A model generated the notes under the pieces. That model had not been told where the DNA came from and did not search any database. It saw only the letters and a list, made by a program, of their open reading frames with translations. This document shows, piece after piece, positions 4,485-19,758 of a DNA stretch of 42,898 bases (within the stretch, counting starts at the first letter, position 1; every line of letters begins with the position of its first letter). Both the position numbers and the translations under genes were made by a program. The stretch lies in the IMG/VR virus record IMGVR_UViG_3300027917_000075, positions 1-42,898 of that record, one strand, 5' to 3'. Origin of the DNA: a virus.

Positions 4485-4769
4485 TTAATCCTCCTGTTTA
4501 TCTGGTTTCCATCCAAAATCAACCATTTTATAGTCTCGACCATATTTACTTTTAATTGTTTGGTCGTGTAATTTAAATATCTTTTTATCAATCATATCAT
4601 ATGGAATACTCATTTTTAACCAAACACCGTCTTCATTTCTATAACACAATCTTAAACCAACACGTAACTGTTTACATTTCCTAACAGTATAATCACCACA
4701 ACTAACAATTCCTTTCCAAATTTTTTTAACTTCGTGTTCTAGATAGCCTGCTATAACTCTATCTTCCAT
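4485..4769 (-). CDS. Hypothetical protein (94 aa)
   Basis: Start ATG at 4769 with GGAGG seven bases upstream; the stop sits immediately before the next start at 4484, and the gene overlaps the end of the upstream gene by 11 bases. The product is mixed alpha/beta with several aromatic residues (IWKGIVSCGDYTVRKC, VWLKMSIPYDMIDKKIF) and ends in DFGWKPDKQED. I see no motif. It belongs to the replication operon by position only. Confidence 0.8.
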   Translation of the reverse strand: MEDRVIAGYLEHEVKKIWKGIVSCGDYTVRKCKQLRVGLRLCYRNEDGVWLKMSIPYDMIDKKIFKLHDQTIKSKYGRDYKMVDFGWKPDKQED

Positions 4770-5322: not shown

Positions 5323-5555
5323 GCACTCCTGCTCAATTTATAAAGAGCGTTAGCAATATCTATATCATTAGTTTTATCAGAATATCCAATATCTCGACGA
5401 GCTCTAGCTAACATACGTGTCATTGCCGGCGTCTTCCATTCCCCATCGTGTCCGTGCTGCGACTGAATCAACTGATGTAGAGTTTGCAATACTCTTTTGT
5501 TACAAGTTTTCTTAATGAATGCTACTTTTTTTGGATATAAGCGTCCTTTGTTCAT
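5313..5555 (-). CDS. Hypothetical protein (80 aa)
   Basis: ATG at 5555 with GGAGG upstream; its end overlaps the next gene by 10 bases and its start overlaps the end of the AAA+ gene. The product is basic and probably helical, with HQLIQSQHGHDGEWKTPAMTRML and a C-terminal IANALYKLSRSACR that could be a small helical bundle. No family recognised. Tight packing supports translation. Confidence 0.75.
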   Translation of the reverse strand: MNKGRLYPKKVAFIKKTCNKRVLQTLHQLIQSQHGHDGEWKTPAMTRMLARARRDIGYSDKTNDIDIANALYKLSRSACR

Positions 5556-8379: not shown

Positions 8380-9080
8380 TATTCAGTCTCCTCTGACGTC
8401 TTAGGGGTTGTAGGAGTTTGTTCTTCTTCGAATTTAAGGTCTCGCTTAATGAAAGCATTGTAAATTCTCTCAGCTCTTTCATAGTCAGCCTTCTTAGCTA
8501 GACCGCCTTCTTCAACACCGAGAACAAAAAACGTACCTTTATTATTAGTACGTGTCTTAGCGCTGATTTTATATGTACGACTAAACAAATCACCGCCATT
8601 CATCTTAGCCATAGTAAGCAACCTACGGCCGGCAGTGTATGATGTGTTACTAAATGATACTACAATAGGCATTTCCTCACCTTCGATAAGACAGAGATAA
8701 TTAAGGTAAGCTGTGGCTAATGGCTTCTCACCATTGGGACCGAACTTAGTCTCCTCTATAACGCGTGGATCATTGGGATCATCGCTACGCCATAACATAC
8801 CACCACCTTCACTACGCGGTACCCAACGAATGAAGTTCTTCCTTAATATGATAGGAATGATGGTAACTTCATCGCCTAGTTCTGATTTGTCAACGCTATT
8901 CAACAATACGCCCGGTTTTGCATCTCCTGTGACTACACTTGGACTTAATGCTTGGGTAAGTTCCAAGCGTGGAAGGATAAGGTCTTCCTGTGTTACTGCT
9001 GCATCAATACCTCTCGGTGCCTTTTGCAACTCTGCTACTTCTTGTGTTCCCTTTTTTACTACGTCTTTTTTCTCTGGCAT
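8376..9080 (-). CDS. Putative single-stranded DNA-binding or recombination-associated protein
   Basis: 234 residues. A conserved-looking segment ILPRLELTQALSPSVVTGDAKPG leads into an alternating beta region (DEVTIIPIILRKNFIRWVP, GGGMLW). The C-terminus is strongly acidic (FEEEQTPTTPKTSEETEY), as in phage SSBs such as T7 gp2.5 that recruit partners through acidic tails. It lies just upstream of the primase gene with a 4-base overlap. I recognise the general phage family by its LPRLxLxQxLSP opening, but not a proven function. The SSB assignment rests on context and tail charge. Confidence 0.5.
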   Translation of the reverse strand: MPEKKDVVKKGTQEVAELQKAPRGIDAAVTQEDLILPRLELTQALSPSVVTGDAKPGVLLNSVDKSELGDEVTIIPIILRKNFIRWVPRSEGGGMLWRSDDPNDPRVIEETKFGPNGEKPLATAYLNYLCLIEGEEMPIVVSFSNTSYTAGRRLLTMAKMNGGDLFSRTYKISAKTRTNNKGTFFVLGVEEGGLAKKADYERAERIYNAFIKRDLKFEEEQTPTTPKTSEETEY

Positions 9081-9095
9081 TTTTAGCCTCCTGTG

Positions 9096-9497
9096 TTATG
9101 TGTTGTCTGATTCTTTTCTTACGCGTACTTCCTGTGTAATGTACACGCTTACTCCCGGCGGTAACTCCTCGTTATTCGCCTTCTTCTCTTTATAATAAGC
9201 GCCAAACTTCTTAGCGTTAAATGACTTACAGAGTTCTATATCACCTGTGTCATTCATCCATCTAAAGAACGACTCTTCATCACTGATACTATAACGAGGC
9301 GTCCTATTCACATAGAATAAGGATCCGTCCAATGACTGACGTGGTATATCGTGCATATCGAAGTATTCAATTAAGTCACCGGACAACTCCTCTAATTTCT
9401 TATTAAGTTCTTTATCACGTTCTTTAAGAGAGGCTTTTTCCACTCTTATAGCACGCACTTCTTTAAGCTTGTCATAAAATTCTTCTGTATTAAGCAT
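9096..9497 (-). CDS. Conserved phage protein with N-terminal coiled coil
   Basis: 133 residues. Residues about 15-45 form a charged helix (KASLKERDKELNKKLEEL), probably a coiled coil. The second half carries NAKKFGAYYKEKKANNEELPPGVSVY before a final beta strand with VRVRK; phrases of this sort recur in phage replication regions. No enzyme motif. Start ATG has GGAGAG nearby in the end of the upstream gene, which it overlaps by 8 bases. Confidence 0.75.
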   Translation of the reverse strand: MLNTEEFYDKLKEVRAIRVEKASLKERDKELNKKLEELSGDLIEYFDMHDIPRQSLDGSLFYVNRTPRYSISDEESFFRWMNDTGDIELCKSFNAKKFGAYYKEKKANNEELPPGVSVYITQEVRVRKESDNT

Positions 9498-9834
9498 TGT
9501 TCTCTCCTAAACATAACTGGTTTTCGGTTATAGTTTGAGGTTGGTAATCACGCGTCTTAGCGTCGAAAATAAGTACATTGACACGACCGTACTTAAACCA
9601 TATCAATGCAGCCGATAAGATATTTAGTACAGGATGTCCTGACAATAACAAGAAGTCATTATCATCCACGTCCCTCAGCTTAGGCTTTATCTCACTAAGC
9701 AAGCTATCTGTGCTAAAAATATTTACACCACGTCCTTCAGTTAAGTATATAAGCTCACCAAAGCGTTCTGCTGAGCTCATATCTTGGTCGCTGTGGTTAA
9801 CGACATATACTTTACGTTTGTTCACTCTATTCAC
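9490..9834 (-). CDS. Hypothetical protein with Rossmann-like strands (114 aa)
   Basis: The sequence reads as alternating strands and helices: VYVVNHSDQDMSSAERFGELIYLTEG, then DFLLLSGHPVLNILSAALIWF and VNVLIFDAKTRDY. The pattern LLLSGHPVLN followed by a strand suggests a small alpha/beta fold, possibly nucleotide related, but no catalytic motif is evident. It follows the SNF2 gene closely and has AAGGAGGTGAAT before its ATG. Confidence 0.75.
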   Translation of the reverse strand: MNRVNKRKVYVVNHSDQDMSSAERFGELIYLTEGRGVNIFSTDSLLSEIKPKLRDVDDNDFLLLSGHPVLNILSAALIWFKYGRVNVLIFDAKTRDYQPQTITENQLCLGENNA

Positions 9835-9838
9835 CTCC

Positions 9839-11188
9839 TTATACCATTTCTACAAGTTTATTCGTTGCTAAATTACTCAAAGATTCCTTTCGACGTAGCG
9901 TGTTGTGTATGCTGACATCAACGGACTTTTTCATTAGTAAATCTATATAGGTACAGTTCTTATCCTGTCCTATTCTATGAATTCTATCCTCTGCTTGTGT
10001 TCTTTCACCATAACTGTAACTATTACTCATAAAGACAGCGTAGTTAGCAGATGTTAAATTGATACCCATACCAGTAGTTTGTATCTGACCTATAAAACAA
10101 CGGACGCTCGCATCTCTGTTGAATTTAGATACGAGAGCAATGCGGTCTTTAGTACTACCTTGCACTGTAACGAACTGTATACCTGCTTTATGTAACGCTT
10201 CCTCAACCATTTTGATTTCAAAAGTGAATCGGCAAAAAACCACAATCTTACGTGTAATCGCGAGATTTTGTATGAAATTAACAAGCCAATCAACTTTTGG
10301 ATTTTTGGTGAACGCATATTCTTCTCCTTCCACTGTTTTTGTAAAGCCTGCTGTTATTTGACTGAATCTCATCAAGCGAGTAAGTATAACTGGCGCGGTA
10401 ATAACTTCATCGCGGAACTCAGCAATGAAACCTTGCTTGAGATCAGCGTATACTTGCTTTTGCTCGTCGGGCATATCAAGTCTAATGATTTGATATAGTT
10501 TATCAGGTAAATCAAGACATTCGTCTTTCGTCTTCCGTATTGCGCAACGATATAATCGTTCACGGAAGTCAACCATATTTACCCACCTCACTACTTGCTT
10601 ATCTAGATAACCACCCATCACTGCATATCTAGAACGGAAACGATAATAGTTTCTGCCATAGATGTCAGGGTTAAGAATACGATACTGTCCAAATATATCC
10701 AATGGATTATTCATTACTGGAGTTCCAGTCAGTATGAGTTTATCTTTGACATAGTGAGAAATATCAAAACAAGCTTTAGACTGCAGCGTCTTAGGATTCT
10801 TAACAGCAGTACTCTCGTCGAGAACTAACAAATCAAATCCTTTTTGAATTAAATTGTGTTTTAGAATACGACATGACTCATAGTTAATGATATACACATC
10901 AGCAGGCCAACTCAGTTTACGAATGCGTTTACCTTTACTGCCTAGTAATGCAATCGCTTCTAAGTTACTATGCTTATGTGTTTCATCTACCCAATTCTCG
11001 ACGAGAGTATTGGGGCAAACTACAAGTGTTTTATAAATTTGATTTTGTTCTTTGCGGTAAGTTGCGATGTCGAGTACGACTTTAGTTTTACCTAAGCCGG
11101 GCTCTAGTAGAAGGGCATAGTAGGGTTTGTCTTTTATATTTTCAAAACACTCCAATTGGTGTTTGAAGCAAGTTGTTTTAAAATCCAT
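9839..11188 (-). CDS. SNF2-family DNA helicase/translocase
   Basis: 449 residues, superfamily 2. Motif I is EPGLGKTK (29-36), motif II VLDES, motif III LTGTP, and motif VI QAEDRIHRIGQ, all in order. Such compact SNF2 proteins are common in phage replication operons and translocate on duplex DNA, perhaps to remodel forks or recombination intermediates. The next gene upstream is a VRR-NUC nuclease whose 3' end overlaps this start by 55 bases; the pair may act together. No extra DNA-binding domain is visible. The family assignment is firm, the substrate unknown. Confidence 0.95.
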   Translation of the reverse strand: MDFKTTCFKHQLECFENIKDKPYYALLLEPGLGKTKVVLDIATYRKEQNQIYKTLVVCPNTLVENWVDETHKHSNLEAIALLGSKGKRIRKLSWPADVYIINYESCRILKHNLIQKGFDLLVLDESTAVKNPKTLQSKACFDISHYVKDKLILTGTPVMNNPLDIFGQYRILNPDIYGRNYYRFRSRYAVMGGYLDKQVVRWVNMVDFRERLYRCAIRKTKDECLDLPDKLYQIIRLDMPDEQKQVYADLKQGFIAEFRDEVITAPVILTRLMRFSQITAGFTKTVEGEEYAFTKNPKVDWLVNFIQNLAITRKIVVFCRFTFEIKMVEEALHKAGIQFVTVQGSTKDRIALVSKFNRDASVRCFIGQIQTTGMGINLTSANYAVFMSNSYSYGERTQAEDRIHRIGQDKNCTYIDLLMKKSVDVSIHNTLRRKESLSNLATNKLVEMV

Positions 11189-11481
11189 TCTATTGCTCCT
11201 TGTCTCGTTGTTTCAGTATTCTGTATTCTGTATATTCTCTTTGAATTCAAATACGTCACTACTTCAGCAAAGCCACCGTGCTTTCTTATCTTCTCTATAT
11301 AATGCCGTTGCAAAGGTGTTGGTTGATTATTGTCTATCTTTACTTCGATAGCAACGAATCGCCCTTGAACACAGCCAATAATATCAGGAATGCCTGCGTG
11401 AAACTTATCGCTGGCTTTCCAAAAAAAGCCGTGTTGTTTAAGCAGTTTTAGTAGGGTTGTTACTACTTGGCTTTCCTTCAT
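11134..11481 (-). CDS. VRR-NUC domain nuclease
   Basis: 115 residues with the PD-(D/E)xK layout of VRR-NUC proteins: HAGIPDIIG with D33, then RFVAIEVK with E46 and K48, and TPLQRHYIEKI with Q58. Stand-alone VRR-NUC proteins act as structure-selective nucleases, for example on Holliday junctions or flaps. It overlaps both the preceding gene (44 bases) and the SNF2 gene (55 bases), suggesting coupled expression with the SNF2 protein. Confidence 0.9.
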   Translation of the reverse strand: MKESQVVTTLLKLLKQHGFFWKASDKFHAGIPDIIGCVQGRFVAIEVKIDNNQPTPLQRHYIEKIRKHGGFAEVVTYLNSKRIYRIQNTETTRQGAIEWILKQLASNTNWSVLKI

Positions 11482-11779
11482 TGTCTTCTCTTAGTTTGAA
11501 TTCCAATACTTTTAGTGATTTGGCTACTCGATCAAAATCCTCTCGTGTAATCTCCTCACCAACTCGGAACGTCAAACCATTTCCACCAATGAAGAAAATA
11601 GAAATTGTGTCTGCGGCTTTGATGTCATAATCCTCGTCGTTGAATTTACCGTTCTCATCGGGAACCGCATCCTCCTTAGGTTTGCGATAAGCAATGCCTT
11701 TCTCGACGGCATACGATACCACATTGTCGAGGATAATAGTAACATCATCTGTGATTTTGAGTTGAATTGGTCGGCTCAC
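11438..11779 (-). CDS. Hypothetical protein, first gene of the replication operon (113 aa)
   Basis: Begins with GTG at 11779; SD AAGGAG stands six bases upstream and fixes this start. It is mainly beta at the start (IQLKITDDVTIILDNVVSYAV), acidic in the middle, with FFIGGNGLTFRVGEEITREDFDRVAKSL, and a disordered C-terminus. No family recognised. It is the first gene after the promoter at 11818-11845. Confidence 0.75.
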   Translation of the reverse strand: MSRPIQLKITDDVTIILDNVVSYAVEKGIAYRKPKEDAVPDENGKFNDEDYDIKAADTISIFFIGGNGLTFRVGEEITREDFDRVAKSLKVLEFKLREDNEGKPSSNNPTKTA

Positions 11780-11817
11780 TACATCTCCTTTCTGTTTATG
11801 GTTAATTGAATGTGAGT

Positions 11818-11845
11818 ATTATACACAAAACCGACCGTATGTCAA
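11818..11845 (-). promoter_or_regulatory. Sigma70-type promoter for the leftward replication operon
   Basis: On the minus strand TTGACA (11840-11845) is followed by a 16-bp spacer and TATAAT (11818-11823). Both hexamers are perfect consensus. Transcription would start near 11811, about 30 bases before the GTG at 11779, and read the replication genes. It lies in the 115-base gap between the genes at 11779 and 11895. Confidence 0.85.
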
Positions 11846-11894
11846 TTAGTTTTTGTACTTTCTACATACAGCACTACATATTTTGCATATGCTG

Positions 11895-12230
11895 TTAATA
11901 CCTTTTGGTCTTCGAACCAGAAGGCCTCTTCACCTTTTTCTTTCGCTTTTTCATAGGCTTTCCTAAAGACTCCATAATTCTCTGTTGTGATAAACGTTTG
12001 CTTTTCGCTTTCCATTGTTTTATCCTCTTTTCATCTTGAGCTATTGCTTCTTGTTCTAATCCTATATGTAAATGCGCGAAGCAATACTCATTAACATTAT
12101 ACATAGAGAGCTTCACCTTACAGATCTTGCACTTGCGAAGACGCTTATTAACGCGTACCCTACCTATAATAGAGAAGGGAACATGACCATCCACGTCCTC
12201 AGCCACCATGATCGGTTTACCTTTAGGCAT
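11895..12230 (-). CDS. Small basic zinc-ribbon protein (111 aa)
   Basis: C34-x2-C37-x12-C50-x2-H53 in a setting KLSMYNVNEYCFA. Spacing and surrounding residues match the zinc ribbon at the N-terminus of the pyrophosphohydrolase gene (4759-5322). The rest is Lys/Arg rich (KRKKKVKRPSGSKTKRY at the end), consistent with nucleic-acid binding. GGAGG precedes the ATG. Likely a DNA- or RNA-binding accessory factor; nothing more specific is visible. Confidence 0.75.
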   Translation of the reverse strand: MPKGKPIMVAEDVDGHVPFSIIGRVRVNKRLRKCKICKVKLSMYNVNEYCFAHLHIGLEQEAIAQDEKRIKQWKAKSKRLSQQRIMESLGKPMKKRKKKVKRPSGSKTKRY

Positions 12231-12329
12231 TTACATACCTCCTTTCCAACATTCTATAAGCAAAGCTGAAATAATAAACGCAATCCCACATAAAAGCAAT
12301 GTGAGTCCTACTCTAGCAAGTATTGGCAT
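12231..12329 (-). CDS. Tiny membrane protein (32 aa)
   Basis: ATG at 12329 follows GGAGGAGGTGTGTTG, a very strong SD. The product is essentially one hydrophobic helix (VGLTLLLCGIAFIISALLI) followed by ECWKGGM. Its start overlaps the TGA of the upstream gene by one base, and its stop is adjacent to the next start. A single-pass membrane microprotein; role unknown. Confidence 0.65.
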   Translation of the reverse strand: MPILARVGLTLLLCGIAFIISALLIECWKGGM

Positions 12330-12553
12330 CAACACACCTCCTCCTTATCTAGCCAACTCTCAATAGCGTCAGCCACCTCATCAGGCACCTCGTTATTTAA
12401 AAAACGAATTGTGCCATCATTATACTCTAGGGCAATAGACCACGTCACCACGTGGCGCATCTCATTATGTCCCTCTTGTGGATTACATATAGGGCAATCG
12501 CCCCCTTGATTACACTCCTTAGCCCACCTCGCTTGTTGACTTTCTAAACACAT
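12329..12553 (-). CDS. Hypothetical protein with Cys cluster (74 aa)
   Basis: Starts at 12553 after AAAGGAGGCTATGCC. Cysteines at 2, 14, 20 and 23 (CNQGGDCPIC) may bind zinc; the second half is beta then helical (WSIALEYNDGTIRFLNNEVPDEVADAIESWL) and acidic. No family recognised. It overlaps its upstream neighbour by 10 bases. Confidence 0.7.
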   Translation of the reverse strand: MCLESQQARWAKECNQGGDCPICNPQEGHNEMRHVVTWSIALEYNDGTIRFLNNEVPDEVADAIESWLDKEEVC

Positions 12554-12714
12554 GGCATAGCCTCCTTTATCACTTCGGATAGTTCTTTGAGCATACTAAT
12601 TGCTTCAGCACACGTCATTAGATATGCATAGTCATCTACAGGGGTAATGCTGAACGTCACGCCCCCATCTTCAATAACCATATAAATGTCTTTACCAATA
12701 TCAATTTTATCCAT
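12544..12714 (-). CDS. Small hypothetical protein (56 aa)
   Basis: ATG at 12714 overlaps the TAA of the upstream gene (TAATG), with AAGGTGG as SD. The product MDKIDIGKDIYMVIEDGGVTFS... has two short strands and a C-terminal helix (YLMTCAEAISMLKELSEVIKEA). It ends at TAG 12544, overlapping the next gene. Packing and SD support it; function unknown. Confidence 0.65.
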   Translation of the reverse strand: MDKIDIGKDIYMVIEDGGVTFSITPVDDYAYLMTCAEAISMLKELSEVIKEAMPCV

Positions 12715-13001
12715 TAAAACCACCTTGTAATTACATTTAAGTCTCTTTTAGCTTTGCAATACTCGTAAATGGTTCGCTTGAGTTCAGGGCTAAGTTCAGA
12801 AAACCTTAGCCCCATTCGTGTTGCACGCTTCTGTGCCATACGCTGTATTGCCCTGTGTGTCTTGCGTTCCTCAAGTGTCATAGGCTTACCTATTATAGCC
12901 TGAGAATAACACGCATTGTCACAATACTTACGCTTCAAGCTACGATTAGCACGCTTAGGGATAGGCTTCTTACAAAATTTACATATCCTAATCGTTCTCA
13001 A
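12714..13001 (-). CDS. Small zinc-finger protein (95 aa)
   Basis: Cysteines C7, C10, C27 and C31 (CKFC...KYCDNAC) form a zinc-knuckle of the kind seen in phage and HNH-associated proteins. The rest is a very basic helical region (RAIQRMAQKRATRMGLRF). Probably nucleic-acid binding. No nuclease residues such as HNH are evident. It overlaps its neighbours at both ends. Confidence 0.7.
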   Translation of the reverse strand: MRTIRICKFCKKPIPKRANRSLKRKYCDNACYSQAIIGKPMTLEERKTHRAIQRMAQKRATRMGLRFSELSPELKRTIYEYCKAKRDLNVITRWF

Positions 13002-13212
13002 GCAAATGCTCCTCTTGCACTGCCTGATAATACTCTAGCTTTTCTTTCATATGGTTAAGGGCGTGTATCTTAATAGCACTATTACAGCCCCTAAGCCTTA
13101 GCTCTATTTCATCATGTCGCCTCACATCAGCCTTGAAGTCATTAACTGATTTTTGTATCTCTGCAAGTATGCCATTAGGTGTGCTAAAGTCCACATCTGT
13201 TTGTCTTACCAT
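12988..13212 (-). CDS. Hypothetical helical protein (74 aa)
   Basis: ATG at 13212 preceded by AAGGGGG at seven to eight bases, the G-rich SD type typical of this block. The product is helical, with charged heptad-like stretches (ILAEIQKSVNDFKADVRRHDEIELRLRG) suggesting a short coiled coil. No family recognised. Confidence 0.7.
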   Translation of the reverse strand: MVRQTDVDFSTPNGILAEIQKSVNDFKADVRRHDEIELRLRGCNSAIKIHALNHMKEKLEYYQAVQEEHLLEND

Positions 13213-13222
13213 TTAGTCCCCC

Positions 13223-13507
13223 TTACTTAGACACTTTGGCAAAATGCCATACATTTGTTTTAGGATTATATTTAGCCTTGATTACATATACACCTTTACA
13301 ATGCTTATAGGCATATGCTCTTGCAGCACCACCTAAACTCTTGCTGTTACACACACAACTCAACGCTTCACCTATACGCAAATTCTTAACAGCCTCGTAG
13401 ACAGGTAAGTATCTTGACTTAACTTCTCTTGTCCAGTCCACATCATCATAATTGACCGTTGTGATTTGAAACTCATCTACTCTTTTCGGTTTTCTCCCTC
13501 TTGGCAT
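13223..13507 (-). CDS. Hypothetical basic protein (94 aa)
   Basis: Starts MPRGRKPKRVDEF after AAGGAG. The body RIGEALSCVCNSKSLGGAARAYAYKHC then VYVIKAKYNPKTNVWHFAKV suggests a helix followed by a beta hairpin, possibly a small nucleic-acid-binding fold. No family recognised. Confidence 0.7.
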   Translation of the reverse strand: MPRGRKPKRVDEFQITTVNYDDVDWTREVKSRYLPVYEAVKNLRIGEALSCVCNSKSLGGAARAYAYKHCKGVYVIKAKYNPKTNVWHFAKVSK

Positions 13508-13532
13508 TATACTACTCCTTTCGGTTTAAGGT

Positions 13533-13760
13533 TTATACTGTCCAACTCTCACACACATCTCGTCGCTTGATATACCACATATCAGCAACTTTTAATGCTC
13601 GTAATGCTCCTCGTCTTATCCTTGCTCGTACTGCTTGTTCCGTGATGCGTAATCTCCTTGCCACATCACGCACTGTTACATAATCGCCATTAATTTCTTG
13701 TACTCCATATAGGCAAGGCGTTATGTAATAGCGTTGCCGACTACCTCTTGTAGTCCACAT
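13533..13760 (-). CDS. Small helix-turn-helix DNA-binding protein (MerR/excisionase-like)
   Basis: 75 residues. Residues 28-62 read YVTVRDVARRLRITEQAVRARI then GALRALKVADMWYIKRRD, which is the winged HTH pattern of the MerR/excisionase (HTH_17) type: recognition helix then a wing with a Tyr/Trp. It may regulate this accessory block. The gene follows a strong hairpin (13782-13835) and its SD AAGGAG lies just after it, so translation may depend on that structure. Confidence 0.75.
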   Translation of the reverse strand: MWTTRGSRQRYYITPCLYGVQEINGDYVTVRDVARRLRITEQAVRARIRRGALRALKVADMWYIKRRDVCESWTV

Positions 13761-13781
13761 AGTCCATACTCCTTTCTTAGT

Positions 13782-13835
13782 GAGGGCATAGGCACAATAA
13801 GGCTTCGGAACTTATTGCGTTATTCCTATGCCCTC
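13782..13835 (-). promoter_or_regulatory. Nested intergenic hairpin before the HTH gene
   Basis: GAGGGCATAGG (13782-13792) pairs perfectly with CCTATGCCCTC (13825-13835), and inside it CAATAAG (13795-13801) pairs with CTTATTG (13811-13817). The structure fills most of the gap between two genes and ends a few bases before the SD of the HTH gene. There is no U-run, so it is not a standard terminator. Likely an mRNA structure controlling stability or translation. Confidence 0.7.
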
Positions 13836-13840
13836 GGGGG

Positions 13841-14047
13841 TTACACAAGTCCAACAGGCAAATTGTTGTCATAATGCTCATCAAAACATTCTTCAGCCTC
13901 AAACTCATTAACAAATAAGCGTGTTGGCTCTATGTCATCAACTTCCAGCGTGTTGGCAAATATCGCCTTAGCTTGTTCTTCATTCATAGCTTCAACATAA
14001 TCTTCATATTCCAATGTTTCTTCATAATAAACTCTAAATAGTTTCAT
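13841..14047 (-). CDS. Small acidic protein (68 aa)
   Basis: MKLFRVYYEETLEYEDYVEAMNEEQAKAIF... is highly acidic, with a beta-helix-beta opening and a C-terminus NNLPVGLV. It overlaps the 3' end of the gene upstream by four bases (ATGA). No family recognised. It follows the ubiquitin-like cassette and its acidic character could fit a mimic or inhibitor, but that is speculation. Confidence 0.7.
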   Translation of the reverse strand: MKLFRVYYEETLEYEDYVEAMNEEQAKAIFANTLEVDDIEPTRLFVNEFEAEECFDEHYDNNLPVGLV

Positions 14048-14535
14048 TTTTCTTTCTCCTTTAGGTCATTGTACTTATTGGCTAAGTAATCTCCAAAGGT
14101 AATTGAAGTGAGAAAATATTTACGGCTTAATACACCAAGTGGCTTACGCCTTAGTATCTGGAATTTCCTAGCTTCATATCTATTTTCTTCGTGATGTTCT
14201 TCTTTAATCACTCTAAAATGCTTATATATCATATTCAAAATGCTACGCTTTGTAGGATAATTAAACGCTTCTAGCTTATCAGGATACAAGTAACCTGTGC
14301 CGTCAGCATAACATCTGAATATCCAATTAGAGCCGTTTTGTTCGTTATTCCTGTAATAATCATTACGCCCTCTTGGTTCTTTAAAACATACTTCTGTACC
14401 AATGCGATTACCATAATAAGTATTGCCTTCTCTTTGCTCACTTATGCCCCTTATGCGTAATCGCCCTACACCCCTTGAATAGCTATTCCAATTATTGAAT
14501 ATAGCTCTATCCTCTATTTGTCTTGCGTAACTCAT
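14044..14535 (-). CDS. Hypothetical protein following the JAB gene (163 aa)
   Basis: Starts MSYARQIEDRAIF after a GGGGG SD, 12 bases beyond the stop of the JAB-like gene. It is rich in Arg, Asn and Tyr, with beta-prone stretches (SNWIFRCYADGTGYLYPDKLEAF) and a basic C-terminal half. No family recognised. Its tight position behind the four-gene cassette makes it a candidate fifth component. Confidence 0.75.
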   Translation of the reverse strand: MSYARQIEDRAIFNNWNSYSRGVGRLRIRGISEQREGNTYYGNRIGTEVCFKEPRGRNDYYRNNEQNGSNWIFRCYADGTGYLYPDKLEAFNYPTKRSILNMIYKHFRVIKEEHHEENRYEARKFQILRRKPLGVLSRKYFLTSITFGDYLANKYNDLKEKEK

Positions 14536-14546
14536 TTATAACCCCC

Positions 14547-15242
14547 TTAATCAAAATGCATAACGCCGTGTTCATTAGCTTCGCCTCTTTCTAAATGCGT
14601 AATAGCGTGATGCCTTTTGCGTTTCTTTTTCTTTTTGCCTTTACCCATTTTACGCTTATCAGTATCCCATTTAGTATTGCCTTCATCTTCCCACCATTTG
14701 CCTTTAGGCATACCTGTATATTGATATGTTTTTTTCGTGATATTATCAAAGCCCTCAATGCTTTCAATAATCGGTGATATAACGGATACATTAGCATCAA
14801 AGAAATGCGTCATCTTACAAGGTAGCTCATAACGCATACACGCTTTCATTTCGCCTTTGTTATTAACAACAATGTGATTTTTGATTAAGCTATTATTTGT
14901 AAATTTCTCGTCAACACCACTAAAGAATACGCCCATAGAAGCGTGAGAATGTATTGTGCAAATAATCCCTCTTTCTTTTATCACATCAGCATTAATTAAG
15001 TCTAAGTTCTTAACAGATGATAGCGTAACTTCTTGCTTAGGTATCCAATAACCCGTAACCCATACGCCCTCTTTATTCTCTATGCCTGTTAATAACATTT
15101 GCCATTCACTTTCAATATCCTTACACAACTTTTTAATAACTGATTGTACTTCAGGCGTTAGCCATATTGTTGAACCTGTATATTGTTCTGCCCAACTGCA
15201 CTCATCTGCATTTGTGCATTTATCTCCTGTATCCCAACTCAT
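14547..15242 (-). CDS. JAB/JAMM-domain isopeptidase-like protein
   Basis: 231 residues. The JAMM zinc-protease signature is complete: E46 (EWQMLLTG), H98-S-H100-x7-S108-x2-D111. Proteins of this kind remove ubiquitin or ubiquitin-like proteins by cleaving isopeptide bonds; relatives are PRTRC protein A, Cap3 and BilC. After the catalytic domain there is a Gly/Trp region and a Lys/Arg block (MGKGKKKKKRKRHH) near 205-218, which could bind nucleic acid. The ATG overlaps the stop of the E1-like gene (ATGA), so the two are coupled. Deubiquitinase-like activity is inferred from motif and context. Confidence 0.88.
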   Translation of the reverse strand: MSWDTGDKCTNADECSWAEQYTGSTIWLTPEVQSVIKKLCKDIESEWQMLLTGIENKEGVWVTGYWIPKQEVTLSSVKNLDLINADVIKERGIICTIHSHASMGVFFSGVDEKFTNNSLIKNHIVVNNKGEMKACMRYELPCKMTHFFDANVSVISPIIESIEGFDNITKKTYQYTGMPKGKWWEDEGNTKWDTDKRKMGKGKKKKKRKRHHAITHLERGEANEHGVMHFD

Positions 15243-16057
15243 AATAAGCCCTCACTTTCTAGTCTATCATCAACATATTCTAGGTCATCATCACTCATAT
15301 TATCTCGATATATGCTGATTATTTTCTCTAAGCGTTTAACCTTTTCACTAGCTTTAACTTTAGGCTGTTTGCCTTGTATAATAGCCCTTAGGTCTAGCTC
15401 AATATCATCATTAATTAAACATCTAGCAAATATGCCTATCCCTGCTGATATACAAGATGTTACTGCATTAGCGTTAGATGTTCTGTATCCTGTTTCATAG
15501 TCATCTGCTGTCCACACATCAAAATTGCTATAACAACCAACATTAAAGCCCTCATAGCCTAGCTTTCTATATGTCATATTGGCTATGTCATTACAATAAT
15601 TAAACAACTGCGTTTGTATCCTTGCATCATCTGTTGTATCCCACAATGTTGCTTTGCTATTATTGTAAAAATATCTAGCCCCCATTGATTTGAAACGCCC
15701 TGTTGCGTTCTTCAATATACTCAATGTGTCTTTCTGAATATTGGTACTCAATGCCATTACAACAGTATCAAGCCTCATTGACCTAATTACTTTGCGTAAT
15801 GCAACAGCTTTATTAGTACCAACCCAAGTTTGTGGTACAGGCAACCTATTCAAATTGCTATAATCTACTGTTTCCCCGTCGATAAGAATAAAATGCCTAT
15901 AACCTAACATAGCTAATTGTATTCCAAGCCAAAAGCCAATGCCACCACAACCCACAATGATATTAATATCATCTTTAGTTAGCTTTGGCGTTAATATACT
16001 ATCAAGCTCAGCTTGTCTTGAATAATCAACAATATTTAATTGTTCTATACTTGCCAT
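15239..16057 (-). CDS. E1/ThiF-like adenylating enzyme
   Basis: 272 residues. The nucleotide-binding GCGGIG lies at 36-41, followed by D60 and SNLNR (67-71) and VGTNKA with K83: the arrangement of ThiF/MoeB/E1 adenylation domains, which activate the C-terminus of a ubiquitin-like protein with ATP. Several cysteines (about 154, 174, 201, 212) could serve as thioester residue; none is decisive. No CxxC zinc motifs are present. It starts inside the end of the E2-like gene (13-base overlap) with a GGGGGG SD and is coupled to the JAB-like gene. The length and neighbours match PRTRC-type ThiF proteins. Adenylating fold is firm; partner is inferred. Confidence 0.9.
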   Translation of the reverse strand: MASIEQLNIVDYSRQAELDSILTPKLTKDDINIIVGCGGIGFWLGIQLAMLGYRHFILIDGETVDYSNLNRLPVPQTWVGTNKAVALRKVIRSMRLDTVVMALSTNIQKDTLSILKNATGRFKSMGARYFYNNSKATLWDTTDDARIQTQLFNYCNDIANMTYRKLGYEGFNVGCYSNFDVWTADDYETGYRTSNANAVTSCISAGIGIFARCLINDDIELDLRAIIQGKQPKVKASEKVKRLEKIISIYRDNMSDDDLEYVDDRLESEGLL

Positions 16058-16761
16058 TGTGTAGCCCCCCTTTCTTCCACGCTTATTATCGTGTCATCAT
16101 TGATAATAGCTTGAAAGTCATAACTAATATTGCCTATTGTTACACTACTACCTGCAGGGCTAAATGTGTTAATCCTATTCATTTGAATAGTTAGGTTTTC
16201 ATCATTTAATCTCCAAAAGTCATTAGCCTTATGCCTACCTGTGCATACATTACTACCATACATAGTATGAAATGTACGCAATTGTGGCGTATACATTTGA
16301 TTAGCTTTCTTGTCATAGCAAAGCACTAATGGAATAGCAAACAACGGCTTAATCTTTAATATCACATTAGCATCTCTATCTCTAAACGCATTCCACATAG
16401 CCCGTCGGTAGTTAATACGAAGCCTATTACGCAACCAACTCATTGAAGCACTAACCTCATTAGGCGAATAGATAATAATGCGTACAGGCATCAACACGCC
16501 ATTAAAAACTATAACAGGCTGATTAAACATACTTTCAGGTATCGCAATAGCCCCTCTTGTTTCAAATTTACGCAAGTGTGCTATTTGCGTATCCCATTCT
16601 TCTTGCATATTATCATTAAGCACTTGCCCAAACTCTTGGGCTAATTGCCCGTGCCTTTCATCATAGAACTCTTTAAGCTCAGCGTTAATATCTATGCCTT
16701 TAGCTTGTATTTCGCTAACAGCATATACTTTGTCGCCTAGCTTTAGATAATTGACTTCCAT
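16045..16761 (-). CDS. E2-like protein (PRTRC protein B / Prok-E2 family D type)
   Basis: 238 residues. The N-terminal half is helical and variable; the C-terminal half has a strand-rich stretch ILKIKPLFAIPLVLCYD, then HTMYGSNVCTGRHKANDFW. The Cys in GSNVCTG (C173) fits the GxVCxG context recalled for prokaryotic E2-like proteins of the PRTRC protein B type, which sit beside E1, JAB and ubiquitin-like genes. This is pattern recognition without a search, so the family call is moderate. It lies between the ubiquitin-like gene and the E1-like gene, the order expected for a conjugation cassette. A GGGGG SD precedes the ATG and a strong hairpin lies immediately before that. Confidence 0.65.
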   Translation of the reverse strand: MEVNYLKLGDKVYAVSEIQAKGIDINAELKEFYDERHGQLAQEFGQVLNDNMQEEWDTQIAHLRKFETRGAIAIPESMFNQPVIVFNGVLMPVRIIIYSPNEVSASMSWLRNRLRINYRRAMWNAFRDRDANVILKIKPLFAIPLVLCYDKKANQMYTPQLRTFHTMYGSNVCTGRHKANDFWRLNDENLTIQMNRINTFSPAGSSVTIGNISYDFQAIINDDTIISVEERGATQWQV

Positions 16762-16783
16762 AGGTTTAACCCCCTTTAGATTA

Positions 16784-16851
16784 GGGCTACGATACTGCTA
16801 AATGATGAGTTTAGAATTGCCAAGTATCACTTGTCTTTTGTATCGTAGCCC
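16784..16851 (-). promoter_or_regulatory. Branched intergenic RNA structure between ubiquitin-like and E2-like genes
   Basis: GGGCTACGATAC (16784-16795) pairs over 12 bp with GTATCGTAGCCC (16840-16851). Enclosed are two further hairpins, CTAAA/TTTAG (16798-16814) and CAAGT/ACTTG (16821-16833), giving a three-way junction. The structure ends a few bases before the SD of the E2-like gene. No U-run follows. It may control relative expression of the ubiquitin-like protein and the enzymes. Confidence 0.75.
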
Positions 16852-16861
16852 CTTTTGTTAT

Positions 16862-17068
16862 TTACTTCTTCGCTTGGTCTAAGACGGCACTAACACGAAT
16901 ATCATTCATATCAACCATATCAGGCAAGTCATCAGGCGTTGTCATCAATTGACCTTTATGAAATACTTTAAAAGCCCCTTTGATGCCTTCATCTTTTGCC
17001 TTTTCAATAATCTTGCTCTTTGCTTCTGCCTTGCTAATTAAACCATTGTCGCTTGTTTCCCATACCAT
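16862..17068 (-). CDS. Ubiquitin-like beta-grasp protein candidate (68 aa)
   Basis: 68 residues. A helix (about 12-27, KAEAKSKIIEKAKDEG) is followed by strands GAFKVFHKGQLM, a DLPD segment and NDIRVSAVLDQ. This matches the second half of ubiquitin in order: helix, LIFAGKQL-like strand, TLSDY-like turn, last strand. The C-terminus is LDQAKK, with no Gly-Gly, as in some prokaryotic ubiquitin-like proteins of E1/E2/JAB cassettes. SD AAGGAG precedes the ATG. It is the first of the four cassette genes. The fold is inferred from pattern and neighbours; a structure prediction would decide. Confidence 0.6.
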   Translation of the reverse strand: MVWETSDNGLISKAEAKSKIIEKAKDEGIKGAFKVFHKGQLMTTPDDLPDMVDMNDIRVSAVLDQAKK

Positions 17069-17116
17069 TTGTTTTCTCCTTTGCTACTTGTTAATAATAG
17101 CTTAACCCGTGCCACA

Positions 17117-17269
17117 TCACACCACATCATCATTATCGCATAACTCTAACCCCCTTTCCAGTTGTGCCTTAGCCCACATCACACCTGCGTTATATCCTTT
17201 AGCAAAACCCAAGAAATAGCCACATAACATTACAACACTACCACTAAGCCAAAAGACTAAATATATCAT
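17117..17269 (-). CDS. Small membrane protein (50 aa)
   Basis: I start it at ATG 17269, where GGGGGATAGCACA provides an SD, rather than the upstream ATG at 17311, which has none. The product MIYLVFWLSGSVVMLCGYFLGF has one membrane helix, then AKGYNAGVMWAKAQLERGL and an acidic end. Its start overlaps the TGA of the tiny gene upstream. Role unknown; a small phage membrane effector is possible. Confidence 0.65.
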   Translation of the reverse strand: MIYLVFWLSGSVVMLCGYFLGFAKGYNAGVMWAKAQLERGLELCDNDDVV

Positions 17270-17358
17270 TGTGCTATCCCCCAAAAGAATTGTATTGCCC
17301 ATAATACCCATAGCCCAAAGGCTATGAGTATTAGGGCTAATGCATTAGTATCTTTCAT
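17266..17358 (-). CDS. Tiny membrane protein (30 aa)
   Basis: ATG at 17358 with GGGGG eight bases upstream; TGA overlaps the next ATG by four bases. Nearly the whole product (NALALILIAFGLWVLWAIQFF) is one membrane helix. Together with the following 50-residue membrane protein it forms a coupled pair of microproteins. It is short, so the evidence is SD, coupling and hydrophobicity only. Confidence 0.6.
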   Translation of the reverse strand: MKDTNALALILIAFGLWVLWAIQFFWGIAQ

Positions 17359-17596
17359 TTAACAAGCCCCCTTTAGTAATGCCCCTTGCATCTAACTTAT
17401 CAAAGTCTAGGTCATTATCTAAAAGGTCTTGTAATATCCCCAAGCGTGTATATATCTTACACACTTCACTTGCCACATTAACATCAAGGGGCATAATTGA
17501 TATGCCTAAATGCCCCAAGTCAACACGAATACCACGCAATATATATTGCTCATAGGTCATACCATTATCAACTATTGTCTTTAGCTCTACGCACAT
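17345..17596 (-). CDS. Hypothetical protein (83 aa)
   Basis: The start is set at ATG 17596, preceded by AAAGGGGGCTAAGA, instead of an upstream ATG lacking an SD. The product MCVELKTIVDNGMTYEQYILRG... has a beta-helix opening and an acidic helix (LQDLLDNDLDFDKLDARG). It overlaps neighbours on both sides. No family recognised. Confidence 0.65.
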   Translation of the reverse strand: MCVELKTIVDNGMTYEQYILRGIRVDLGHLGISIMPLDVNVASEVCKIYTRLGILQDLLDNDLDFDKLDARGITKGGLLNERY

Positions 17597-17714
17597 TCTT
17601 AGCCCCCTTTGTTTTAGTGTTATTGCCTTTAGGCTCAAAGCGTTCATACCACCCAAGCCCCTTGCACTTGTCCTCTACCACTTCAGCTTTATTTATTAAT
17701 TCACATTTGTCCAT
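17568..17714 (-). CDS. Small basic protein (48 aa)
   Basis: ATG 17714 to TGA 17568, with AAAGG upstream; its end overlaps the next gene's start region. The product MDKCELINKAEVVEDKCKGLGWYERF then turns very basic (KGNNTKTKGAKNVRRAKDNS). It starts after a strong hairpin (17733-17767). No family recognised. Confidence 0.5.
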   Translation of the reverse strand: MDKCELINKAEVVEDKCKGLGWYERFEPKGNNTKTKGAKNVRRAKDNS

Positions 17715-17732
17715 AGTAATAGCCTTTGTTAT

Positions 17733-17767
17733 AATAACACAAGGGGCATTTAGCCCCTTGCGTTATT
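17733..17767 (-). promoter_or_regulatory. Intergenic hairpin
   Basis: CAAGGGGC (17740-17747) pairs with GCCCCTTG (17753-17760) around a 5-base loop; after one A/C mismatch the stem continues AATAAC/GTTATT (17733-17738, 17762-17767). It lies between two minus-strand genes and ends a few bases before the next SD, as do the other hairpins of this block. No proper U-run follows. Confidence 0.7.
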
Positions 17768-17776
17768 GTGCTTTGA

Positions 17777-18064
17777 TTATAGGTCTATTTGCGTTATACT
17801 GTCAGATGATTTATTGGGCTGTGGCACTTTGCCCACTCTAACATCAACATATAAAGTTATAGGTTCGCCTTTGTCCGTTGTGCCTATTGCTATGCCCGAT
17901 TTAAAACGCCCTGCCCCCTTATAGAACTTTGCAAGTTGTTTATAACTTGACTTTACGCCGTTGTATTCTTGCTCGATAGTGCGTGGCTCGAATACTATCT
18001 TTGGCATAATATACTGCCCTGCCGATACTGCCATACCACTTTGCCATTTTACTTGATTAGCCAT
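17777..18064 (-). CDS. Hypothetical protein, first gene of the accessory block (95 aa)
   Basis: Starts at ATG 18064, after AAAGGGGGTTACAGTA; an in-frame ATG 21 bases earlier would place the SD inside the gene. It has beta-prone and basic segments (YIMPKIVFEPRTIEQEYNGVKSSYKQLAKFY, ITLYVDVRVGKVPQP). No family recognised. It is the first gene downstream of the leftward promoter near 18134-18162. Confidence 0.7.
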   Translation of the reverse strand: MANQVKWQSGMAVSAGQYIMPKIVFEPRTIEQEYNGVKSSYKQLAKFYKGAGRFKSGIAIGTTDKGEPITLYVDVRVGKVPQPNKSSDSITQIDL

Positions 18065-18133
18065 TACTGTAACCCCCTTTGCCAATTTGTTTAGCTATTT
18101 GGCGTTTAGCTTGTGGCGTTTTGCCACGCTTTC

Positions 18134-18162
18134 AGTATAACCCGATTTTTCGATTTTCGCAA
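18134..18162 (-). promoter_or_regulatory. Probable promoter for the leftward accessory block
   Basis: On the minus strand TTGCGA (18157-18162) is separated by 17 bp from TATACT (18134-18139). The match is moderate (4/6 and 5/6). It points toward the gene at 18064, with a leader of about 60 bases that includes a small hairpin (GTGGC 18113-18117 with GCCAC 18123-18127). Confidence 0.55.
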
Positions 18163-18203
18163 CCCGTTGCCGTGCAACAACTTGCGACAATTTCGGGGCG
18201 TGG

Positions 18204-18241
18204 TTTCCGACGGGGAAACATTTGGTTTTCCGACGGGGAAA
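18204..18241. repeat. Duplicated 15-mer TTTCCGACGGGGAAA
   Basis: Two perfect copies at 18204-18218 and 18227-18241, 23 bp apart start to start. Each is itself partly palindromic (TTTCC...GGAAA), which suggests protein binding sites. They adjoin the tandem decamers. Confidence 0.85.
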
Positions 18242-18258
18242 TGCGAAAAAATGCCGAT

Positions 18259-18298
18259 TTTTGCGTGGTTTTGCGTGGTTTTGCGTGGTTTTGCGTGG
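18259..18298. repeat. Four tandem copies of TTTTGCGTGG (iteron-like)
   Basis: Four perfect contiguous 10-bp units. A 10-bp period puts each copy on the same helix face, as expected for iterons bound by an initiator or regulator. They stand next to A/T tracts in the non-coding region. Confidence 0.9.
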
Positions 18299-18313
18299 CT
18301 ATTAGTATCGTAA

Positions 18314-18388
18314 TGCGTATTGCGTTAGAAAAAAAAAAAGAGGCATATTATTAAGAATAAATGTTTTTTGTTACACACGCAATACGCA
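18314..18388. repeat. 12-bp perfect inverted repeat with 51-bp spacer
   Basis: TGCGTATTGCGT (18314-18325) and ACGCAATACGCA (18377-18388) are perfect complements. The spacer contains an A-tract. It may extrude as a cruciform or bind a dimer; it lies between the decamer repeats and the T-tract. Confidence 0.8.
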
Positions 18389-18421
18389 GGGCGTATAGGG
18401 CATAAAAGACAAGAAAAAAAT

Positions 18422-18458
18422 ATAAAGTATTATATAATCTTTATTTTTTTTTTTTTTT
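18422..18458 (+). terminator. Possible rho-independent terminator or AT-rich unwinding tract
   Basis: ATAAAG and CTTTAT arms (18422-18444) with a very AT-rich stem precede fifteen T residues (18444-18458) on the plus strand. The stem is weak, so it may instead be simply an easily melted tract of an origin. As a terminator it would insulate the rightward promoter from upstream transcription. Confidence 0.35.
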
Positions 18459-18479
18459 AGTCCTATGCCTAGTATAGCA

Positions 18480-18505
18480 CGGCACGGCACACGGCACACG
18501 GCACA
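18480..18505. repeat. Short tandem repeat CGGCACA
   Basis: Three perfect contiguous copies (18485-18505) preceded by a partial copy CGGCA (18480-18484). A GC-rich patch within AT-rich non-coding DNA. Function unknown. Confidence 0.8.
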
Positions 18506-18671
18506 AGTATATGATATATATAGACATAGCCCCCCTGCCTATTGGATTTCGCATCTATGCCCACAGCTGTCGCGTAGGATCGACCTTTAAAATATTCTAA
18601 AATTTTTCTAACATGTTGAAAAAGGGTGACAAACATTGACATTTTTTTTTCACAAATTTTTGCAATTTTTG

Positions 18672-18747
18672 ACAATCCATTGTACATTTTTTGTCACTTT
18701 TGTACAATCAATTGTAAAAAAATGCTTGACTTTGTACAATCAATTGT
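18672..18747. promoter_or_regulatory. Three operator-like palindromes at exact 32-bp spacing
   Basis: ACAATCCATTGT (18672-18683), ACAATCAATTGT (18704-18715) and ACAATCAATTGT (18736-18747) start 32 bp apart, about three helical turns. The last lies inside the spacer of the rightward promoter, so binding there should block RNA polymerase. The two proximal copies share a longer context, TTTGTACAATCAATTGT. The ribbon-helix-helix-like proteins encoded just downstream are candidate binders. Confidence 0.8.
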
Positions 18748-18754
18748 CTATAAT
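18726..18754 (+). promoter_or_regulatory. Rightward sigma70-type promoter
   Basis: TTGACT (18726-18731), 17-bp spacer, TATAAT (18749-18754). Start would be near 18761, giving a short leader with AAGGAGG before the ATG at 18786. An operator palindrome occupies the spacer. Confidence 0.88.
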
Positions 18755-18785
18755 TGACACTAGAAAATTAACTAAGGAGGTGAAA

Positions 18786-19037
18786 ATGGAATATTTTCCA
18801 GATAAAAACTTAAAAGAGTGCTACGAATCACTCAACACGTTACACGATCAAGCACACCACTCATCACAGATGATGGCGGCAGATGGCGACGAGGATTTAG
18901 CACAAATGTTAACTTCTATGTACATTTCTAATCATAATCAGGGAATTATGTTGTGGCATTTGCTTATCAGATTAGAAAAAAAAATGGATGCTCTTTTAGC
19001 TAAGATAGATAAACCTCATAAGAGATTTGAAATTTAA
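18786..19037 (+). CDS. Hypothetical protein, first rightward gene (83 aa)
   Basis: ATG with a perfect SD (AAGGAGGTGAAA). The product is acidic and helical, rich in His and Met (LHDQAHHSSQMMAADGDEDLAQML), with a C-terminal helix LLIRLEKKMDALLAKI that could be a coiled coil. No family recognised. Being first after the repressible promoter it is an early gene. A T-rich stretch (19038-19079) follows and may attenuate transcription. Confidence 0.8.
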   Translation: MEYFPDKNLKECYESLNTLHDQAHHSSQMMAADGDEDLAQMLTSMYISNHNQGIMLWHLLIRLEKKMDALLAKIDKPHKRFEI

Positions 19038-19124: not shown

Positions 19125-19298
19125 ATGAGCCACAATGTAAGAATTTCCGATAACCTATGGCCGTTACTGGCCGCGGAAGCCGGGAAACGTATCACGACGC
19201 CATCAAGACTCACTGATTTAGCCATCAGACGCGAGCTTGGGTTAGAACCAACGAGGATTATAATAGAGAAGGAGGAAAAAGATGGCGAAAATTGTTAA
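19125..19298 (+). CDS. Ribbon-helix-helix-like small regulator (57 aa)
   Basis: Start chosen at ATG 19125, directly after GAAAGGAGGGGAT; an earlier GTG has no well-placed SD. MSHNVRISDNLWPLLAAEAGKRITTPSRLTDLAIRREL fits the strand-helix-helix pattern of CopG/Arc-type DNA-binding proteins, which act as dimers on palindromes. It may be an autoregulator of the promoter with the ACAATCAATTGT sites. The next gene overlaps it by 17 bases. Confidence 0.6.
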   Translation: MSHNVRISDNLWPLLAAEAGKRITTPSRLTDLAIRRELGLEPTRIIIEKEEKDGENC

Positions 19299-19758
19299 AA
19301 GAATCAGTTTTTATGCGGAAACTTGGACTCAAATTGAGGAAAAGGCTAAAGTACGTAACACGAGCCCCACACAATGGGTTATAGATGCCGCAATGGACCG
19401 TCTACACGGTACGATCCGTGACACGCAACTCGCAATTGACGTTTCTGCACCTGCGAGTAAGCGTCCCAAGCGTCCCAAGACTGAGGTACAGGAAGATAAG
19501 CCTTCGGGCGAGACTCCACCTCCCAATTGGGGCGTGGACATTAAGAGGATACAGGAGCTGCAGGAGGTCGTGGCCCGTGAGAGAGACCTTCTGGAGAGCT
19601 ACCTTAGTGCCACGGTGAGGGATCCTGCCACGGGTGAGGACGTACCGGATAACCCCGACGCTTGGTATATAGTGGAGTGCCGCGAGAGACTAAGCGCGGC
19701 GGAGGAAGAGCTGGATCAGTTGGTTCCAAAGACGGAGGCACCTGATGAGTTGGTATGA
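19282..19758 (+). CDS. Ribbon-helix-helix-like protein with C-terminal coiled-coil region (158 aa)
   Basis: The first 45 residues, IVKRISFYAETWTQIEEKAKVRNTSPTQWVIDAAMDRL, again look like a ribbon-helix-helix domain. A Pro/Lys-rich linker follows, then charged helices (IKRIQELQEVVARERDLLESYL, ECRERLSAAEEELDQL). Its GC content is visibly higher than its neighbours. It may regulate or organise DNA; the tandem arrangement with another RHH-like gene is notable. GGAGG precedes the ATG. Confidence 0.6.
   Translation: MAKIVKRISFYAETWTQIEEKAKVRNTSPTQWVIDAAMDRLHGTIRDTQLAIDVSAPASKRPKRPKTEVQEDKPSGETPPPNWGVDIKRIQELQEVVARERDLLESYLSATVRDPATGEDVPDNPDAWYIVECRERLSAAEEELDQLVPKTEAPDELV

What the first reader, a model, noticed from the sequence alone, without database searches (positions are those of the whole stretch)
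18204..18505. Candidate replication origin with iteron-like repeats
Within 300 bases: two 15-mers TTTCCGACGGGGAAA, four perfect TTTTGCGTGG decamers, a 12-bp inverted repeat, long A and T tracts and a CGGCACA array. They lie between divergent operons. The repeats have no coding explanation. The initiator could be one of the island's unknown DNA-binding proteins.
Basis: partly seen in the sequence, partly recalled or inferred. Interest (0 to 1): 0.6.

Follow-up and report, generated by a model that had tools for sequence, protein, structure and literature searches.

The report
Conserved control region in phage genome
In the gap between the two oppositely transcribed halves of an uncultured bacterial virus lies a ~450-base non-coding block of short repeats flanking an easily melted stretch; its layout, but not its exact letters, is kept in about nine related viruses, which makes it a good but unproven candidate for where the virus starts copying its DNA and controls its genes.

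Summary
The repeats are real and well beyond chance. The window is not an island: it is an entire uncultivated tailed-phage record. A replication/early operon (- strand) diverges from a packaging/structural operon (+ strand), and the repeats lie in the 721-bp gap between them, the largest non-coding gap. Related phages (TerL 67-88% identical) keep a fixed order: 10-bp-period array, A-tract, ~90-115 bp of easily melted DNA, T-tract, 7-bp-period array, conserved C-box (CCCCCC-n-CCTRTT), sigma70-type promoter. The 10-bp period is found in most, the 7-bp period in all nine tested, although unit sequences differ. Small ribbon-helix-helix-fold proteins encoded just to the right are natural candidate binders. 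Best explanation: a cis-acting control region combining the phage replication origin with operators of the divergent promoters, working like (not homologous to) the Lactococcus c2 origin. Origin activity is not shown. The GC-skew minimum lies here, but in a complete relative the skew follows gene orientation, so it does not count as evidence. Packaging site (cos/pac) and pure regulation remain live rivals. Interest 0.45.

The parts
17777..18064 (-). first gene of the leftward (early/replication) operon, unknown function, 35-36% identical homologue in relative G006
   Evidence: RBS-like AAGGGGG upstream (sequence)
18134..18162 (-). candidate leftward promoter P_left, TTGCGA-N17-TATACT
   Evidence: weak by itself (shuffle p 0.23) but at 166 bp from the A-tract, against 170 bp for TTGACA-N17-CATACT in relative G002
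18204..18241 (.). two 15-bp dyads TTTCCGACGGGGAAA, operator-like; relative L049 has ACTTCCGACGGAAAT at the corresponding place
18259..18298 (+). 10-bp-period tandem array, TTTTGCGTGG x4; same place holds GGACANNCCN-like 10-bp arrays in most relatives
18314..18388 (.). 12-bp perfect inverted repeat (arms 18314-18325 and 18377-18388) around the A-tract; not conserved in relatives
18329..18339 (+). A-tract (A11)
18340..18439 (.). low-stability A/T interval between A-tract and T-tract (candidate DNA unwinding element)
   Evidence: 78% AT; best 100-bp window among the least stable 0.6% of the record
18440..18458 (+). T-tract, followed in relatives by YTAG
18483..18505 (+). 7-bp-period array CACGGCA x3.3; all relatives have a 7-bp-period GC-rich array here (e.g. 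GTGTTAC-GTGAAAC-GTGCCAC)
18530..18543 (+). C-box CCCCCCTGCCTATT; most conserved DNA of the region in relatives (CCCCCC-n-CCTRTT)
18663..18756 (.). palindromic operator repeats (TTTGTACAATCAATTGT x2 plus a diverged copy) overlapping P_right
18726..18754 (+). rightward promoter P_right, TTGACT-N17-TATAAT (11 of 12); near-consensus promoter in all nine relatives
18786..19037 (+). first gene of the rightward operon (83 aa), homologue in L012
19125..19298 (+). small protein, ribbon-helix-helix-like N-terminus, homologous to L012 2676-3119
19282..19758 (+). protein with predicted ribbon-helix-helix fold (first 51 aa modelled)

Best explanation
The 18134-18785 gap is the cis-acting control region of a virulent tailed phage of a clade with no close cultured member, and most likely includes its replication origin. 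Proposed working: small phage ribbon-helix-helix (RHH) proteins (and perhaps an unrecognised initiator) load cooperatively on the 10-bp and 7-bp arrays, bend or strain the A-tract/T-tract-bounded interval so that it melts, and the phage's own MCM-like helicase, primase and family A polymerase enter there; binding to the arrays and to the palindromes also switches the divergent promoters P_left (replication genes) and P_right (packaging/structural genes). Shown: repeats, periods, promoter-like sites, conserved order, low duplex stability, RHH fold prediction. Inferred: origin activity, which protein binds which array, helicase entry, switching.
For: Fixed order of elements in about nine relatives with strongly diverged letters; the strict composite pattern found at this locus in 8 records (7 distinct relatives plus near-duplicate L020; window and G001 deviate in one element) and 0 times in 80 shuffled genomes. 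Period 10 left of the A-tract and period 7 right of the T-tract stand out against neighbouring lags in 8/9 and 9/9 records. A-T interval among the least stable 0.04-2% of 100-bp windows in every record. Largest non-coding gap of the window and of complete relative G002. Phage encodes its own family A polymerase, MCM-like helicase, primase, SNF2 helicase and nuclease in the adjoining operon. RHH fold for first + genes: AlphaFold pLDDT 85, the leading PDB matches are RHH proteins (TacA, AtaR, NikA, PutA, Arc, CopG; TM 0.6-0.8). Precedent: Ceduovirus origins lie between divergent early and late blocks, are non-coding, and fall into sequence types without similarity that still replicate a plasmid (PMC7150918).
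Against: No direct evidence of replication start. GC skew is explained by gene orientation. No known initiator/Rep family in the early operon; DnaA boxes not enriched. The 10-bp array is absent in L049. Conservation equally fits promoters/operators, and the C-box plus nearness to terminase genes fits a packaging site. RHH assignment rests on fold only (Foldseek E 0.2 and above; no Pfam hit). P_left is convincing only in G002 and L016.
Confidence: 0.5

Rival explanations
1. Packaging site: the C-box and flanking arrays are the cos or pac site cut by terminase, so the virion DNA ends lie here and the divergent arms point inward from both ends, as in L5-like mycobacteriophages.
For: The C-box is the best conserved DNA of the gap and TerL is the best conserved large enzyme (67-88%); terminase genes are the first recognisable genes of the + operon; contig L048 begins exactly at the C-box and contig G002 was cut 74 bp away.
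Against: It lies about 2.4 kb upstream of the putative small terminase gene with several genes between. G002's terminal overlap is an exact 123 bp, which fits an assembler k-mer better than a biological end (inference), and its cut is at a T15 run that could break assembly. The other contigs end elsewhere. Does not explain the A/T interval or the paired arrays. Distant TerL relatives (46% identity and below) lack the composite.
Confidence: 0.2
2. Purely regulatory divergent switch: all repeats are operators of phage repressors/activators acting on P_left and P_right; the origin is elsewhere.
For: Strong P_right in all nine records with palindromic or tandem operators on top in several (window, L015, L012); RHH proteins encoded next door; TTTCCGACGGGGAAA dyads next to P_left.
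Against: About 400 bp separate the two promoters; the conserved A-tract, T-tract and C-box lie 100 bp or more from either, more than ordinary operators need. No other sizeable non-coding gap is available for an origin outside genes, though an origin inside a gene is possible, as in lambda.
Confidence: 0.22
3. Partition (centromere) site of a phage-plasmid, like omega/parS of pSM19035 (7-bp repeats) or ParR/parC (about 10-bp repeats).
For: RHH-fold proteins plus contiguous 7-bp and 10-bp arrays resemble those systems (PMC9499535).
Against: No ParA-type (AAA_31) family and no integrase in five records; the gene content is that of a virulent phage; only 3.3 heptads, whereas omega needs four or more to activate its ATPase.
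Confidence: 0.04

Closest known systems
Ceduovirus (Lactococcus phage c2 / bIL67 / 923) replication origins (PMC7150918)
   Same: Non-coding region between divergent early and late blocks of a virulent phage; repeats and palindromes; several sequence types with no similarity but the same position and role.
   Different: No DNA similarity. c2-type origins lie between the first two early promoters and need no phage protein in plasmids; here the region lies between P_left and P_right, the paired 10-bp/7-bp arrays and C-box are not reported for c2, and the phage brings its own polymerase, primase and MCM-like helicase.
Lambda-type / plasmid iteron origins (own knowledge)
   Same: Direct repeats beside an A/T-rich unwinding interval.
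   Different: Iterons there are ~17-22 bp and cognate to a known initiator; here units are 10 and 7 bp, on opposite sides of the interval, and no initiator is recognised.
Omega/parS heptads of pSM19035 and ParR/parC arrays (RHH proteins; PMC9499535)
   Same: Contiguous 7-bp (omega) or about 10-11-bp (ParR) tandem repeats bound cooperatively by RHH dimers, overlapping promoters.
   Different: No ParA or other partition ATPase found; arrays flank an A/T interval; unit sequences unrelated.
cos region of divergent-arm phages (e.g. mycobacteriophage L5; own knowledge)
   Same: When the genome is circularised, virion ends fall between divergent arms.
   Different: No end evidence here; the A/T interval and arrays are not part of such cos sites as far as I know.

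Membership tests
Iteron-type replication origin | tandem direct repeats beyond chance | tested here: met
Iteron-type replication origin | adjacent easily melted A/T-rich interval | tested here: met
Iteron-type replication origin | cognate initiator (Rep/O-like) gene | tested here: inconclusive
   No Rep family among most early-operon proteins scanned; RHH proteins are present but not known initiators
Iteron-type replication origin | host DnaA boxes (present in many, not all) | tested here: not met
   counts near expectation in all nine records
Iteron-type replication origin | autonomous replication of the segment | not testable with these tools
   needs a host and a plasmid assay
Ceduovirus c2-type origin | non-coding region between divergent early and late blocks | tested here: met
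Ceduovirus c2-type origin | sequence homology to a c2, bIL67 or 923 origin | tested here: not met
   no blastn match in 50,697 phage records; so it is not filed as a member
Ceduovirus c2-type origin | flanked by two early promoters PE1/PE2, with a transcript lacking an RBS | tested here: inconclusive
   one weak leftward and one strong rightward promoter; no transcript data
RHH-bound array (omega/ParR type) | 7-bp or 10-bp contiguous arrays | tested here: met
RHH-bound array (omega/ParR type) | RHH-fold protein encoded nearby | tested here: met
   (fold prediction only)
RHH-bound array (omega/ParR type) | partner ParA ATPase | tested here: not met
   ParM was not searched separately
cos/pac packaging site | virion DNA ends at the site | not testable with these tools
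   no reads available; contig ends only hint
cos/pac packaging site | conserved short sequence near terminase genes | tested here: met
   about 2.4 kb from the putative terS in the window

The most novel reading that the evidence does not exclude
A phage replicator of a layout not described before: a melting interval bounded by an A-tract and a T-tract, flanked on the early side by a helically phased 10-bp array and on the late side by a 7-bp array plus a C-box, where fast-evolving RHH proteins and their arrays co-diverge between relatives and couple replication start to the divergent early/late promoters and to an MCM-like helicase.
Probability: 0.22. Interest if true: 0.65.

Novelty: new variant of a known kind. 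Interest (0 to 1): 0.45.

Why it matters
Origins are unmapped for almost all uncultured phages, and those of phages with MCM-like helicases are poorly known. A layout that can be recognised by element order and period instead of by sequence gives a testable signature. If the arrays and the RHH proteins co-evolve, it would show how phages swap control proteins while keeping one replicator plan.

Tried and rejected
(1) GC skew as origin evidence: the minimum is here, but in complete relative G002 the maximum sits at the gene-orientation switch (36.5 kb), not at the antipode, so rejected as evidence. (2) DnaA boxes: not enriched. (3) RNA element: no Rfam hit and no consensus structure around the C-box. 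(4) Conserved cruciform: the 12-bp inverted repeat is significant in the window only; it has no counterpart of the same design in relatives. (5) Exact repeat in other viruses: TTTTGCGTGG x2 absent from IMG/VR; no isolate phage matches the DNA. (6) C-box scan of IMG/VR: only relatives of this clade carried it with the A/T tracts. (7) Linkage test, does the region travel with terminase or with replication genes: uninformative, because both modules always occur together in this clade. (8) G002's 123-bp terminal repeat read as a physical end: set aside as a probable assembler overlap. (9) Phage-plasmid: no ParA or integrase.

Full report
What the window is. The 42,898-base window is an entire virus record, not an island. 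Genes on the - strand (2632-18064) encode a family A DNA polymerase, an MCM-like P-loop helicase, a DnaG-type primase, Pam3 gp32/33/34-like proteins, an SNF2 helicase and a VRR nuclease. Genes on the + strand (18786-42661, and 133-2631 across the contig ends) encode terminase, portal, capsid, tail and internal virion proteins. Gene order in relatives shows that the contig is a permuted piece of a circular map; about 12 kb between its two ends appear to be missing compared with G002 (inference).

The observation. They sit in a 721-bp gap (18065-18785), the largest non-coding gap; even when spurious short ORFs are counted as coding it keeps 379 bp, while the next inner gap is 100 bp.

Comparison with relatives. 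The polymerase and terminase found relatives at 56-58% and 67-88% identity. A strict composite pattern of A-tract, T-tract and C-box matched at this locus in 8 of 10 sequences searched and in none of 80 shuffled genomes; the window (G in the C-box spacer) and G001 (shorter T-tract) miss the strict pattern only narrowly. The C-box is found in 11 of 11 aligned records.

Periods. For each record, identity at lags 7-12 was measured in the 200 bp left of the A-tract and compared with 2000 random segments of the same contig. Lag 10 stands out in 8 of 9 (fractions 0.0035-0.08; L049 has none). Right of the T-tract, lag 7 stands out in 9 of 9 (fractions 0.002-0.05), while lags 6 and 8-10 do not; lag 5 is also high in the window alone. 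Since the random segments sometimes overlap the array itself, the small fractions are upper bounds. Unit sequences differ: TTTTGCGTGG here; GGACAACCTA in L016; GTCATGGACA in L015; CACGGCA here; GTGTTAC-GTGAAAC-GTGCCAC in G002.

Melting and promoters. The A-T interval lies among the least stable 0.04-2% of 100-bp windows of each contig. A near-consensus rightward promoter is present in all nine (10-11 of 12 positions); the window's is TTGACT-N17-TATAAT, covered by palindromic repeats TTTGTACAATCAATTGT. A leftward promoter is convincing in G002 and L016 and plausible in the window, at nearly the same distance from the A-tract as in G002 (166 and 170 bp).

Candidate binders. Small genes at the start of the + operon in every relative share an N-terminal pattern. 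A model of the window's 19282 gene product with 13 relatives (pLDDT 85) has the strand-helix-helix order, and its leading structural matches are ribbon-helix-helix proteins (TacA, KacA, AtaR, NikA, PutA, Arc, CopG, SvtR), with TM-scores 0.6-0.8 but Foldseek E-values of 0.2 and above, as expected for a 50-residue domain. These N-termini are only 14-24% identical to one another. RHH dimers bind contiguous short repeats cooperatively, for instance 7-bp heptads for omega of pSM19035 (PMC9499535). That these proteins bind these arrays is inference.

Mechanism. The anatomy (arrays on both sides of a melting interval, in the sole large gap, next to the phage's own replication operon) fits an origin that is also the operator region of both operons. 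The best precedent is the Ceduovirus origin, between divergent early and late blocks, with sequence types that share no similarity but all drive plasmid replication (PMC7150918). It works like that; it is not a member, since no DNA similarity exists.

What does not count or speaks against. The cumulative GC-skew minimum is at 18194, but in the complete circle of G002 the skew stays positive up to 36.5 kb, where gene orientation switches, far beyond the antipode at about 26 kb; it therefore reports gene direction. DnaA boxes are not enriched. No Rep-type initiator was recognised. A packaging site is a real rival: the C-box is the best conserved DNA, TerL is the best conserved large protein, and one contig (L048) starts exactly at the C-box. 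A linkage test that could have separated packaging from replication was uninformative.

Verdict. Observation confirmed and extended; origin interpretation partly supported, about 50%. New variant of a known kind (divergent-gap phage control/origin region), interest 0.45.

Noticed in passing
window 14547-17068 (- strand): A ubiquitin-conjugation-like cassette: ThiF/E1-type adenylyltransferase (15239-16057; Pfam ThiF E 8e-15, weak PADLOC E1-E2 hits) flanked by 14547-15242, 16045-16761 and a 68-aa protein 16862-17068 that could be JAB-, E2- and ubiquitin-like by position and size only; the whole set is conserved in G002.
   Followed up: partly
window 5555-8379 (- strand): MCM-like P-loop helicase and DnaG-type primase as two adjacent overlapping genes; PHROG 18685 and Microbacterium/Bacillus phages match both parts, in some annotated as one primase/helicase.
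   Followed up: partly
window 1-132 and 42706-42898: Contig ends do not overlap; compared with complete relative G002 about 12 kb of late genes seem to be missing between them.
   Followed up: partly
L023 (G002) 1-123 and 51783-51905: Exact 123-bp terminal overlap, probably an assembler k-mer, so G002 is a complete circular map of 51,782 bp although the tool's listing does not mark it complete.
   Followed up: yes
window 29255-33232: 1325-aa repetitive tail-fibre-like protein; relatives have much shorter versions (299-561 aa).
   Followed up: no
window 8376-9834: Three adjacent proteins matching cyanophage Pam3 gp34/gp33/gp32 families, suggesting a shared replication-associated block.
   Followed up: no
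window 4759-5322: dATP/dGTP diphosphohydrolase N-terminal domain (Pfam PF18909, E 2e-17), possibly nucleotide modification or pool control.
   Followed up: no
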